NCBI RefSeq assembly: GCF_010183535.1
Contig: NC_071331.1
Coordinates: 17,174,001-17,238,000 of the forward strand
DNA from: Caenorhabditis remanei
Lineage: Eukaryota > Nematoda > Chromadorea > Rhabditida > Rhabditidae
Reading direction: 5' to 3'
DNA: 64,000 nucleotides
Shown here one piece after another: positions 21,193-27,686 of the stretch; positions within the stretch are counted from its first letter, which is position 1; every line of letters starts with the position of its first letter. The notes under the pieces were generated by a model. That model was not told the origin of the DNA. It saw nothing but the letters and a program-made list of their open reading frames with translations, and did no database searches. The translations under genes were made by a program, and so were the position numbers.

Positions 21193-24100
21193 TTAGTCGC
21201 TGAACCTTCCAGGTTTCCTTCGGTTACGAGCGGGATTCCGTCTTGCTCCTGTAGGTGGTTGAGCCGGAACAGTTTCTTCGGAACGTCTTGTCTTCCTCGG
21301 CTTATTGACTTTAGCCGGTGGTTTCTTGATCGAAACAGATCCTTTTGATGAATCAGTTGTGCATTCAGCTTTTTCAGCTGAATTATTTACCCCAGATGGG
21401 TTGTTAACAGTTTTAGCATTATCTTCCTTCCTGTCCGTTGATAACGCGTCGGTCTTTCGACCTTCGCAAGTGTTATCCGTAACGGGAAGTTTATCTTGAA
21501 GAACATACTTTTTGATTTGATCGAGATGTACTCTCTTCTCTTTCTTTTCGGGTCTACCAATATCTTGGATGATAGCTTCAGATCCGTTGACTTTGATAAC
21601 TCGATATTCTCCAGTCCATGGAAGGACCAGTTTTCTGGAGAGGCCTTTCTTTGACTCGTAATTCTTCATCATGACACGGTCTCCTGGTTGAATTCCGGAA
21701 CCGAGAGCTCCTTTGTTGGCTTGAGCTTGTCTTACAGATTGTGCTCGAATGGAGTTTTCAGCAGCCAGTTTCCAGGCGTCTTGAAGAGTTGTTGTCAGAT
21801 GGCGAGTCCATCCTTGATAGTCAGGTTCTTTTTGTGACAGCGGTGTCGGATCCAAGATCTTGTCGATCACAAACACTGGATCTCTTCCAAACATCAAATA
21901 AAATGGAGTTTCTCCTGTAGTTGAGTGAACAGCGGTGTTGTAAGCAAACGCCACTTGCTTCAGAATCTCATCCCAGTTCGTGTGATCCTTGTTGACCAAT
22001 TTGGATGTCATTTGATGGAACGTCCTGAACGATCTTTCGGTAGCTCCATTTCCCTTTGAGTGGTGTGGGATGGCCAGATGATGTTTGACGCTAAGAAGCT
22101 CACAGAACATCTTGAACGCCTCCGCTTTGAACGCGGGGCCATTGTCAGAGACAATTTCCGTAGGTGTACCAAACTTGAGTACGCATTCCTCCAGAATCGC
22201 CCGAGATACCGTGTCAGCAGTCGCATCCTTCAGCGGAATGGCGATCACGTACTTCGAGAACCAACAGATGACGTTCATGTAGTACTTGTTGCCATTGATT
22301 GACTCTTTCAGTGGTCCGCACATATCGACTCCAATCTTCTCGAAGATGGTTGAAGTTAGCACGATCGACTGAGGTTCCCGAGTTGATGGATGTGGAATCC
22401 TCTTCAGCTGACACTGCACGCACTCTGCTGCCCACTTCAAGAAGTGCATCTTCATGTTAGGCCAGAAGTACCTAACTTGAGCCTTCTGGTGTGACTTTCT
22501 CCCGTTGAGATGACCTCCAGATATTGGGTTAGCGTGGAATGACTCGAACACCAGTCGTCGAAGACTCTCAGGTATGACTGTTCTGAGTTTTCCTTGGAAT
22601 GATACGGTAAGTATCCCTTTGTCGGAGATTACAACTCTGTCTAGCACGTCATTCCACTGCCTTGACAATGAATCAATCGGAGTAGCTGGATGCTTCAAGA
22701 AATTCTTGATCATAGAGATCTCCTTATCCTTGTCCTGTTCGTCCAGCAGACTGATCGGATTGCTATCTCCGTGTGCATTGAATGAACTAGCCGGACTTTT
22801 GGCTACCATGCAGTATGGAAACTCGACAATGTCTTCCAGTTCCTGCCCTTCCAAAGGCTTCGATTCATCCTTTGCTCTCGACAAGAAGTCAGCTACAGTG
22901 TTCTTCTTTCCGTCGATATGAACGATCTCCACATCATATTGTTGAAGTTCAACCAACCATCTAGCCAGCATGTCGTTGACCTTGCTCTTAGCCATCAGAA
23001 AACGAAGTGGACGGTGATCTGTGTGAAGAATCACTTTCGATGCGTAGAGATACGGCTTGAACTGGCGCAGAGCAAAAACTATCGCTCCCAGTTCATTCTG
23101 AACTGCTGCTCGTTGAGCTTCACATGCCGACAGAGTCCTAGAGACATAAGCTAACGCTTGGTAACTCTTCGGGTCATCAGGAGACGTCTGAGTCAGAACT
23201 GCTCCCTGTGCGACAGCACTTGCATCCGTGAAGACGTGGAATTCCCTGTTGTAGTCCGGGAACGCTAACACCGGCTTGCTAGCCAAAGCTTTCTTCAGTG
23301 TAGAGACTGCTTTCTGCTGTTCTTCACCCATGACGAACTTTACATCTTTCCTCGTCAGTCTTGTTAACGGTTCAGTTATTTCTGCATAGTTCCTGATGAA
23401 CTTCCTGAAGAATCCAGTCATTCCAATGAATCGACGCAGCTGTATGATGTTTAACGGCATCGGAGCTTCCAGAATCACCTTGACGTTGGCCTGGTTTGGA
23501 CTGTAGTTTTCACCATTGATCTCATGTCCCAGAAACACAATGGACGTCCGTACGAATTCGCACTTCTTAGGAGAAGCCTTCAGATTGTACATTCTGAACC
23601 TCATCAGAACTTTCCTCAGAGTTGTCATGTGTTCCTCGAACGTTTTGCTGAATATCAGTACATCATCAATGTACAGCATGACGTCATCGTCCATTCCAGC
23701 GAGCACGGTTTTCAGGGCTCTTTGAAAGTACGAAGCGGCTGACTTCAAGCCAAATGGAAGATGTGTGTAGGCGTAGACACGTTTCTCAGTGATGAAACCA
23801 TACTTGTATGACGACTCTTGGTCCAAACGGAGTTGAAGATAACCGTTAGCCATGTCTAGCGACGTGAAGAAACGAGCTTTCCCCACCTTCTCAATGATCG
23901 AATCAATCCTTGGAAGAGGATAGTTATCCGGGATTGTGATTTCGTTCAGCTTTCTGAAGTCCAGACAGACTCGCAAAGCGCCATTCTTCTTTCTCACCAA
24001 CACAATGTTGCTGGTCCAGGGAGTGTTACTTTCCGTGATACGTCCCGATCTCAAAAGTCCATTGATGTGACCTTCCAGCTCCGCCTGATACTTCGCCGGA

Positions 24101-24381
24101 GTTCTGTACGGTCTTCCTCTGACTGGAACTTCTGTGCTGGTGTAAATATGCACTGGATCAGTTTTTGAACTACCCAAGTCGTAAGCGTTTTTGGAAAACA
24201 CGTCATGGAACTCATCCAACATAGCTTGAAGTAACGCCTTCTGAGTTTGAGTGATCCCCTCGGCTTTGCTGAGATCGATCTTGAACGTTGGATCCACCTC
24301 CTCTTCGTCTCTGGCTGCCACATGTAAAATGGGAAGAGAGGTGGTTGTAGTGTCAAAAACACTGCAACCCCCCAGCAGCAT
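21193..24381 (-). CDS. Retrotransposon pol: RT, RNase H, integrase (1062 aa)
   Basis: This encodes the reverse transcriptase and integrase polyprotein of the element. The RT active-site motif YIDD lies near residue 237, preceded by LPFGLKSAASYFQ. The RNase H signature FTDAS lies near 386 and TDHRPL further on. The integrase has an HHCC-type zinc finger followed by the catalytic Asp in a VDMCGP block (about 685), the second Asp in SDNGPAF (about 745) and the Glu in NGATERSF (about 778). All catalytic positions are present. The C terminus is charged and low-complexity and contains one of the four hairpins. The ORF overlaps the gag ORF by 29 bases and is offset by +1 nucleotide relative to it, so expression probably needs a +1 (or -2) frameshift, as described for yeast Ty3. 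Confidence 0.93.
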   Translation of the reverse strand: MLLGGCSVFDTTTTSLPILHVAARDEEEVDPTFKIDLSKAEGITQTQKALLQAMLDEFHDVFSKNAYDLGSSKTDPVHIYTSTEVPVRGRPYRTPAKYQAELEGHINGLLRSGRITESNTPWTSNIVLVRKKNGALRVCLDFRKLNEITIPDNYPLPRIDSIIEKVGKARFFTSLDMANGYLQLRLDQESSYKYGFITEKRVYAYTHLPFGLKSAASYFQRALKTVLAGMDDDVMLYIDDVLIFSKTFEEHMTTLRKVLMRFRMYNLKASPKKCEFVRTSIVFLGHEINGENYSPNQANVKVILEAPMPLNIIQLRRFIGMTGFFRKFIRNYAEITEPLTRLTRKDVKFVMGEEQQKAVSTLKKALASKPVLAFPDYNREFHVFTDASAVAQGAVLTQTSPDDPKSYQALAYVSRTLSACEAQRAAVQNELGAIVFALRQFKPYLYASKVILHTDHRPLRFLMAKSKVNDMLARWLVELQQYDVEIVHIDGKKNTVADFLSRAKDESKPLEGQELEDIVEFPYCMVAKSPASSFNAHGDSNPISLLDEQDKDKEISMIKNFLKHPATPIDSLSRQWNDVLDRVVISDKGILTVSFQGKLRTVIPESLRRLVFESFHANPISGGHLNGRKSHQKAQVRYFWPNMKMHFLKWAAECVQCQLKRIPHPSTREPQSIVLTSTIFEKIGVDMCGPLKESINGNKYYMNVICWFSKYVIAIPLKDATADTVSRAILEECVLKFGTPTEIVSDNGPAFKAEAFKMFCELLSVKHHLAIPHHSKGNGATERSFRTFHQMTSKLVNKDHTNWDEILKQVAFAYNTAVHSTTGETPFYLMFGRDPVFVIDKILDPTPLSQKEPDYQGWTRHLTTTLQDAWKLAAENSIRAQSVRQAQANKGALGSGIQPGDRVMMKNYESKKGLSRKLVLPWTGEYRVIKVNGSEAIIQDIGRPEKKEKRVHLDQIKKYVLQDKLPVTDNTCEGRKTDALSTDRKEDNAKTVNNPSGVNNSAEKAECTTDSSKGSVSIKKPPAKVNKPRKTRRSEETVPAQPPTGARRNPARNRRKPGRFSD
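21440..21477 (-). ncRNA. GNRA hairpin motif, copy 1 (3' end of pol)
   Basis: In element sense the inner hairpin is GGTC-GAAA-GACC, then an AA/GA internal loop, a GCG/CGC stem, a 4-base bulge ACTT on the 5' side only, and an outer stem GATAAC/GTTATC. The copy lies within the pol ORF and reads CEGRKTDA there. Confidence 0.7.
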
Positions 24382-27199: not shown

Positions 27200-27686
27200 T
27201 GAACGCTTCGATGGTTGTTTCGAATCAGAAATTACCTGAAACGAATAGAAATCCAGCAGCCCATGTGCTGCCGGAAACAGGAGCGAATGGCCTAAGTCGG
27301 GTATACGGATAAAATCGATAATTTTAAGGCCGTAGGCAGCGCGTCGGTATTTCTACCTTCGCATGTGCTGCCCCGGTAAACAAGCGACGAAATAAAACAC
27401 GTGACACGATTAAAACGAAGCTTATAAAACGGGAAGCGCATCCTACGCCAATTTCCCCCACCGGGAATTCAAAACACCTAACACTAACCTACGCGCCAGC
27501 GGAAACACTTAATGTAAATTGCGCACTTTACAAGAAGGGGCGGGCGGGAGGGTGTAAACGAAAAGAGAAAACGGGTTATGGTCCCGAGCCAGCTAACAAA
27601 ATACAAGTAGAAAATGTGGGTGGGAAGCGTGGGTGGGTCTTAAAGTAATTCTTAAAAATGAAAGAAAAACAAACGATGCTGCTACC
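27200..27686 (-). other. Untranslated leader of the retrotransposon with primer-binding site
   Basis: This lies between the 5' LTR and the gag start. The first bases after the LTR in element sense are GGTAGCAGCATCG. Together with the last T of the LTR they form TGGTAGCAGC, which looks like a site for a tRNA 3' end (CCA complement TGG). I cannot name the tRNA. The leader contains hairpin copy 4 at 27335-27372. Confidence 0.6.
27335..27372 (-). ncRNA. GNRA hairpin motif, copy 4 (untranslated leader)
   Basis: The inner hairpin is GGTA-GAAA-TACC, again a compensated closing pair. The 5' bulge is ACAT and the outer stem is GGCAGC/GCTGCC. This copy lies about 136 bases upstream of the gag start codon and is not translated, so its conservation cannot be due to protein sequence. 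Confidence 0.75.

What the first reader, a model, noticed from the sequence alone, without database searches (positions are those of the whole stretch)
21440..27372. Four covarying GNRA-hairpin elements spread along a Ty3/gypsy retrotransposon RNA
Seen: in element sense, four sites (27372-27335, 26880-26845, 26182-26145, 21477-21440) share the plan outer stem, short 5' bulge starting A and ending T, GCG/CGC stem, AA/GA internal loop, GGTN/NACC stem and GNRA tetraloop. The closing pair varies as C-G, C-G, G-C and A-T with both sides changing together, and the tetraloop is GAAA or GCGA. The outer stems are unrelated in sequence yet all pair: GGCAGC/GCTGCC, CCGCC/GGCGG, GCCAC/GTGGC and GATAAC/GTTATC. 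Three copies lie in coding sequence (CEGxxTDA) and one in the untranslated leader, so protein conservation alone does not explain it. GNRA is read only on the element's sense strand, which fits an RNA role. Inference: a repeated cis-acting RNA element, perhaps recognised by Gag for packaging or dimerisation, or a control of translation or stability. I know of no description of it.
Basis: partly seen in the sequence, partly recalled or inferred. Interest (0 to 1): 0.87.

Follow-up and report, generated by a model that had tools for sequence, protein, structure and literature searches.

The report
Shared RNA hairpins tag worm retrotransposons
A small RNA hairpin, repeated two to seven times per element, is shared by sixteen mobile elements of one worm genome that otherwise carry different genes, which suggests it is an address label that lets their RNAs be recognised, and perhaps packaged, together.

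Summary
The four hairpins lie at the stated places in a 7.57-kb Ty3/gypsy element with identical 449-bp LTRs. In the whole genome I count at least 79 copies (78 from two pattern searches, one from a covariance model), all within 16 places carrying one 22-nt leader signature; 8 other pattern matches look like chance. The covariation score exceeds all 500 shuffles, and outer stems pair with their own partner far better than with foreign ones. Many copies are non-coding, so a peptide motif cannot explain them.

The 16 elements form two hairpin groups and carry different cargo: four gag-pol, four SF1 helicase (one with gag-pro), two gag-pro with an extra zinc knuckle, five a zinc-knuckle-type ORF, one partial. 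No element was found with both pol and helicase; one hairpin-free relative has gag, pol and helicase together in 12.1 kb.

Best reading: a repeated cis-acting RNA tag, most likely recognised by Gag for packaging, shared by gag-pol elements and dependents. Packaging is inferred, not shown. Boldest reading: a retrotransposon genome split over several elements with a common address. My literature searches listed no description of it.

The parts
27331..27377 (-). hairpin copy 1 (leader, GAAA loop, outer stem GGCAGC/GCTGCC)
   Evidence: (E 2.5e-15)
26840..26886 (-). hairpin copy 2 (gag, CEGGNTDA, outer stem CCGCC/GGCGG)
26141..26187 (-). hairpin copy 3 (gag, CEGRETDA, GCGA loop, outer stem GCCAC/GTGGC)
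21436..21482 (-). hairpin copy 4 (end of pol, CEGRKTDA, outer stem GATAAC/GTTATC), 427 nt before the 3' LTR
27687..28135 (-). 5' LTR, 449 bp, identical to the 3' LTR; element flanked by 4-bp target duplication ATGT
20570..21018 (-). 3' LTR, 449 bp
27678..27686 (-). primer-binding site GGTAGCAGC, the same in the ten hairpin elements whose leader start was read
27620..27641 (-). leader signature AAGACCCACCCACGCTTCCCAC, 16 exact matches in the genome
27572..27586 (-). second conserved leader hairpin CGGG-ACCATAA-CCCG, identical in 8 of 9 aligned leaders
24353..27199 (-). ORF1, gag-protease, 948 aa: capsid-like domain, zinc knuckle, aspartyl protease
21193..24381 (-). ORF2, pol, 1062 aa: RT, RNase H, integrase
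21019..21030 (-). polypurine tract AAAGGGGGGAGG

Best explanation
The hairpin is a selected, repeated cis-acting RNA element of one LTR-retrotransposon family: a variable outer helix, a 4-7 nt bulge on the 5' side, a nearly fixed rod GCG-AA-GGU/ACC-GA-CGC (internal loop partly or wholly paired in some copies of the second group) and a GNRA or C-Y-R-N loop. That part rests on covariation. It is most likely an address label bound by the family's Gag, probably the zinc-knuckle region, so that RNAs carrying it enter the particle, several copies per RNA raising avidity (inferred). Gag-pol elements and elements lacking pol or gag share the label along with LTR ends, PBS and leader signature, so the latter would be mobilised in trans (inferred from anatomy).
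For: 79 copies within 16 elements; each of the 16 has a copy 236-293 nt after the signature. Covariation; RNAalifold without a given structure returns the fold with double changes in 7 of 12 pairs. Outer stems of 23 site classes: mean 4.74 bp with own partner, 2.12 with foreign partners; 0 of 4000 permutations reach the observed sum. Of 52 copies examined for frame, 30 are not in a long open frame in the CEG register. In L034 and L036, where the capsid remnant is short or holds stops, the five site groups that include them keep the 16 core letters 97-100% identical with flanks 64-92%. Strand: 63 G-U against 24 A-C cells in 51 distinct rows. Five pol-less partners keep 4-bp target duplications, LTR ends, PBS and a PPT; a sixth keeps LTRs, PBS and PPT. 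Mosaic capsid (L038, 91-98% DNA identity to the window over codons 361-600) and a 95% identical RT in the other hairpin group suggest RNAs of these elements meet. Gag with a CCHC knuckle is encoded.
Against: No binding or packaging data. The mosaics could also come from recombination between DNA copies. Capsid similarity does not track hairpin type cleanly: L037 (GNRA) has a capsid only 57% identical to the window. L031 and L037 have only two copies and none near the 3' end. One copy (L034:4683) has no outer stem, apparently after a deletion between copies, and the element still has identical LTRs. 9 of 23 site classes do not reach 5 bp in the strict registers. The hairpin is absent from a complete relative with 72% RT identity, so the lineage as a whole does not need it.
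Confidence: 0.55

Rival explanations
1. The hairpin is a cis-acting RNA element of another kind: nuclear export of unspliced RNA, translation or stability control, or localisation, bound by a host factor or by an element-encoded regulator such as the zinc-knuckle protein of the partner elements.
For: The same covariation evidence. In Cer1 of C. elegans, export of unspliced genomic RNA needs the element's protein CERV (PMC10309623, abstract and passages read). Five partners carry a zinc-knuckle-type ORF and L037 a second knuckle.
Against: Copies in leader, gag region, cargo and near the 3' end fit multivalent coating of the whole RNA at least as well. A CERV-like protein was not sought, so this rival is little tested.
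Confidence: 0.28
2. Protein-level conservation of a peptide CEGxxTDA.
For: Coding copies share one frame; two database Gag proteins carry CEGSDTDA.
Against: 30 of 52 copies examined are not in a long frame in that register, among them leaders, a 3' UTR and decayed gag; L038:8720 lies in another frame of a long ORF; outer stems covary.
Confidence: 0.02
3. The core is a small mobile or recombinogenic cassette spread by template switching, with pairing a by-product.
For: L034:4683 looks like the 5' half of one L036 copy joined to the 3' half of another, with about 925 nt missing between (positions).
Against: A copied cassette would not bring many unlike outer stems that pair with their own partner, nor paired changes at orthologous sites such as A-U to G-C in the leader copy and C-G to A-U in copy 3.
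Confidence: 0.06
4. Chance or a feature of base composition.
Against: Only 1 of those 172 has a paired GNRA loop and 9 have an outer stem of 5 bp or more. In this genome the reversed-pattern controls give 0, 12 and 0 matches against 45, 62 and 24.
Confidence: 0.01

Closest known systems
Dispersed packaging signals of RNA viruses (MS2 and others; PMC6281560)
   Same: Several hairpins with a shared recognition motif spread over one RNA; the MS2 motif combines apical-loop letters with an A in the 5' bulge (passages read).
   Different: There the letters vary around the motif; here a 16-letter core is nearly fixed, the carrier is an LTR-retrotransposon family, and partner elements share it. Capsid or Gag binding is not tested here.
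Retroviral Psi and NC-binding hairpins (PMC7599994)
   Same: Leader hairpins; a GNRA-type tetraloop in HIV-1 oligonucleotides and zinc-knuckle contacts to hairpin loops are described (passages read).
   Different: Psi is concentrated in the 5' region (recalled); here copies recur through gag, pol or cargo and near the 3' LTR.
Non-autonomous LTR elements mobilised in trans (TRIM, LARD, BARE-2, Cassandra; recalled, with the search listing)
   Same: Shared LTR ends, PBS and leader with an element that encodes pol.
   Different: Here the shared label is a repeated covarying hairpin, and several partners carry long open ORFs (SF1 helicase, zinc-knuckle type).
Cer1 of C. elegans (PMC10309623)
   Same: Caenorhabditis LTR element, Ty3/gypsy by the title of PMC3315495 (listing), whose Gag associates rapidly with newly exported genomic RNA (abstract read).
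   Different: 'Stem-loop', 'RNA element' and 'export element' have no match in its main text; no repeated hairpin appears in the passages read.

Membership tests
Ty3/gypsy LTR retrotransposon (window element) | LTRs, PBS, PPT, pol order RT-RNase H-integrase | tested here: met
   RT 129-288, RNase H 352-482, integrase 603-774; identical LTRs, 4-bp target duplication
Dispersed packaging signals | several copies of one recognition motif along the genomic RNA | tested here: met
   2-7 copies in each of 16 elements
Dispersed packaging signals | binding by the capsid or Gag protein promoting assembly | not testable with these tools
   needs binding and packaging assays
Retroviral Psi | structured element in the leader downstream of the PBS | tested here: met
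   copy 236-293 nt after the leader signature in 16 of 16
Retroviral Psi | confined mainly to the 5' region (recalled) | tested here: not met
   a copy within 440 nt of the 3' LTR in 6 of 8 bounded elements
Known Rfam RNA family | reaches a family's gathering score | tested here: not met
   0 matches in the window; 3 sub-threshold matches, all on the other strand, in 701 bases
CTE/RRE-type export element | promotes export of unspliced RNA through NXF1 or a Rev-like protein | not testable with these tools
   no expression or export data
Non-autonomous LTR partner | lacks pol but keeps LTR ends, PBS and PPT of the autonomous element | tested here: met
   L031, L034, L036, L037, L038 (PPT of L038 is a variant) and C1:6401698-6408041; ends of five further pol-less elements not fully read
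Multipartite genome | segments are each needed for propagation of the whole | not testable with these tools
   distribution fits, dependence not shown

The most novel reading that the evidence does not exclude
A split, multipartite LTR retrotransposon. A relative without the hairpin keeps gag, pol and an SF1 helicase in one element (C6:21082423-21094560, 12.1 kb), and a C. japonica protein (P0021) joins integrase and helicase. In the hairpin family these functions sit on separate elements, none found with both pol and helicase, in two parallel sets (GNRA and C-Y-R-N loops), and the hairpin would be the common address that brings the RNAs into one particle.
Probability: 0.3. Interest if true: 0.93.

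Novelty: new variant of a known kind. Interest (0 to 1): 0.83.

Why it matters
How Gag selects RNA in LTR retrotransposons, and how partner elements are taken along, is hard to study because the signals are seldom visible in sequence. Here one short structured motif is kept while surrounding genes are lost or exchanged, in two variants. That makes a recognition code testable with short RNAs and purified Gag. If the split-genome reading holds, it would be a multipartite retrotransposon; the searches listed none.

Tried and rejected
Peptide motif: rejected because of non-coding copies. Rfam families: none. No nematode genome other than the window's own could be scanned, so spread beyond this genome is untested. 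Protein traces: the gag search scored only the 7993 candidates sharing most words and gave 2 proteins, both C. remanei, both with CEGSDTDA; no EGxxT[DN] trace in the 17 best (P0012-P0028) of 152 pol hits. A different repeated hairpin in hairpin-free relatives L219 and L220: none found (largest clusters 1 and 2, shuffles 1-2); L219 does not cover that element's leader, and one search did not include L223 or L225. Simple match of capsid type to hairpin type: rejected, L037 does not fit. Zinc-knuckle letters (CHYCK.EGHF in GNRA elements, CGK in two C-Y-R-N ones) are a weak lead from few lineages. The first outer-stem control included 4 antisense readings and near-duplicates; one search replaced it. 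L046 came in through a chance match inside an inverted repeat and was dropped. One search examined 52 of the 57 model matches (3 of L033 and 2 of L043 left out as near copies). The copies were gathered by similarity of the core, so pairing of the inner stem is partly selected for; the outer stem was not.
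Full report
Check of the observation. The four sites are at the stated places on the minus strand with the stated stems and loops. The element runs 20570-28135 with identical 449-bp LTRs, a 4-bp target duplication ATGT, PBS GGTAGCAGC and PPT AAAGGGGGGAGG. 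ORF1 is gag-protease (capsid-like, zinc knuckle, aspartyl protease), ORF2 is pol. Hairpins lie 325, 816, 1515 and 6220 nt after the 5' LTR, the last 427 nt before the 3' LTR. A search for clusters of like hairpins gives the four as its largest cluster; five shuffles give at most 2 (its settings were chosen knowing the motif).

How many copies. The exact GNRA pattern has 28 matches in the 130-Mb genome; with up to 2 mismatches 45, reversed control 0. A loop-free pattern gives 62, control 12; a pattern for the paired-internal-loop variant gives 24, control 0. Of these 86 plus one model match, 79 lie within 8.6 kb downstream of the leader signature AAGACCCACCCACGCTTCCCAC, which occurs 16 times without mismatch in the genome (plus one 3-mismatch match); the other 8 are scattered and look like chance. 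Each of the 16 signature places has 2 to 7 hairpins, one of them 236-293 nt after the signature. LTRs at both ends were read for 10 of the 16; for the rest only parts were held.

Structure. 43 copies align without gaps. Standard pairs in 86.6% of cells against 74.2% after shuffling, covariation score 0.342 against 0.135, 0 of 500 shuffles for either; pairs with double changes and further pair types are reached by 21 and 9 of 500; sliding partners by 1-3 columns gives 28.9-50.8%. The 28 GNRA-group copies (87.5 against 73.7%) and 57 model matches (86.3 against 73.9%) agree. 13 divergent copies give 79.5 against 73.6%, score 0.248 against 0.154 (0 of 500), but their outer helix is only 56.4% paired in this fixed register and further pair types are reached by 75 of 500; pair 18-35 changes from G-C to A-U in four leader copies. 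The tool warns that related sequences can beat shuffles without structure; the sliding control and the site-class test do not share that weakness. RNAalifold on the 57 matches without a given structure returns the same fold, 7 of 12 pairs with double changes, and adds a U-G pair at the base of the inner stem. With one representative for each of 23 site classes (some related to each other) and strict registers, the outer stem is 4.74 bp long on average with its own partner and 2.12 with foreign partners; 14 of 23 reach 5 bp against 7.3% of 506 foreign combinations; none of 4000 permutations reaches the observed sum. Of the other 9, two have long stems with a longer bulge (L038:8720, L040:3988), L034:4683 has none, six have 3-4 bp. 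Sense RNA is favoured: 63 G-U against 24 A-C cells, mean MFE -16.7 against -14.7 kcal/mol.

Two groups. One group has GNRA loops closed by C-G, G-C, A-U or U-A; exceptions are two L036 copies with C opposite U and L038:2023. The other has C-Y-R-N loops closed mostly by U-G. In that group some copies replace the AA/GA internal loop: wholly by C-G plus G-U pairs in leader copies, and in the pol-less elements also in the second and ORF-start copies; partly (C opposite A or U) at the 3' end. The copies between keep AA/GA or AA/AA.

Not a peptide. Of 52 model matches examined, 22 lie in a long open frame in the register CEG (two of these, L037:2923 and L038:1528, without an in-frame ATG upstream) and 30 do not: leaders, decayed gag, 3' UTR, stretches without ORF; L038:8720 is in another frame of the helicase ORF, two codons before its stop. 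The capsid remnants of L034 and L036 are short or hold stops, yet the hairpin core there equals the coding copies. Over eight groups of orthologous sites the 16 core letters are 93-100% identical and the flanks 61-92%; single pairs of sequences are weak evidence, and the lowest flank value of an L034/L036 pair is due to the deletion described below.

What the 16 elements carry. Four gag-pol: window, C2:16672688, C4:9319260 (99-100% RT identity) and C5:2287282 (95%, C-Y-R-N group, one in-frame stop within the RT match). Four with an SF1 helicase ORF of 1131-1243 aa: L034, L036, L038 (with gag-protease) and C4:1892369 in the C-Y-R-N group. Two gag-protease with zinc knuckles on both sides of the protease in L037 and gag-protease in two overlapping frames in L031. 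Five C-Y-R-N elements with homologous ORFs of 375-424 codons, the zinc knuckle read in one of them. One partial copy, L033, beside C2:16677122. Among the 119 RT and 38 helicase matches, no hairpin element holds both. The eight elements and C1:6401698-6408041 share LTR start TGTAAGGTAT, PBS and a like PPT (variant in L038); the exact PPT was not found in L221. Eight of these nine have at most 1 LTR difference; L037's LTRs differ in length and are 97.8% identical.

Relatives without the hairpin. Two elements with 69-72% RT identity were read: L219 (leader not covered) and L220. The best model match has E 0.75. The L220 element spans C6:21082423-21094560 with identical 380-bp LTRs, the same PPT, and gag-protease, pol and a helicase ORF. 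A C. japonica protein (P0021) joins integrase to a helicase that aligns over 941 residues at 25% with that of L038. So pol plus helicase in one element is probably the older state and the hairpin family looks split (inference); no helicase match lies near the L219-type elements among the 38, so helicases have also been lost or never gained.

Mosaics. L038 is 91-98% identical in DNA to the window over gag codons 361-600 but 63% over 721-840. The C-Y-R-N gag-pol element has RT-RNase H 95%, capsid 64% and NC region 48% identical to the window. L034 seems to join two halves of L036-type hairpins. Template switching between co-packaged RNAs would give this (established for retroviruses); recombination between DNA copies is not excluded.

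Mechanism. Shown: a selected RNA structure, repeated, family-wide, independent of coding. Inferred: recognition in trans, most economically by Gag, because elements that lack gag and pol keep it along with the other cis parts. The most constant letters lie in the GCG/CGC and GGU/ACC rods and the purine internal loop, so the contact is more likely there than in the tetraloop. Not excluded: export, translation or localisation.

Host. No tool states the source.

Print. Searches cover open-licence PMC papers only and list the best rows (for example 15 of 257, 12 of 354, 8 of 516). The listed rows show no description of this hairpin or of a helicase-bearing LTR family in Caenorhabditis. PMC10309623: outline, abstract and passages read. 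PMC6281560, PMC7599994, PMC5563155, PMC5408684: passages read. PMC4974528: five terms sought, none present. Others: listing only.

Noticed in passing
L034:4508-8029, L036:1460-4972, L038:4998-8726, L224:1161-4553, L223:2774-5599: LTR elements of this genome carry a long open SF1 helicase ORF (AAA_12 and related Pfam domains); for L038 the nearest solved structures are ZNFX1 and UPF1. A C. japonica protein joins integrase and a related helicase.
   Followed up: partly
window 27572-27586 and 27620-27641: Two further strongly conserved leader stretches in 9 aligned elements: AAGACCCACCCACGCTTCCCAC and the hairpin CGGG-ACCATAA-CCCG.
   Followed up: partly
L037:2889-5639 (residues 801-814), L222:2411-3499: A similar zinc-knuckle module after the protease in L037 and in a separate ORF of C-Y-R-N partner elements.
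   Followed up: partly
L034:4668-4714 against L036:5700-5746 and 4775-4821: An apparent deletion between two hairpin cores left a chimeric hairpin without outer stem.
   Followed up: partly
window about 27252-27272 (-): The leader repeats GGCAGCACATG followed by GGCTGC shortly after hairpin 1, like a hairpin lacking its core; similar in L034, L036, L038.
   Followed up: no
window 17815-18243 and 19419-19976 (+): Two similar ORFs that resemble SUN-domain proteins (recalled resemblance), within 3 kb of the 3' LTR.
   Followed up: no
L031:3613-3659: An ATG inside this hairpin opens a 362-codon frame in L031; not kept in L037.
   Followed up: no
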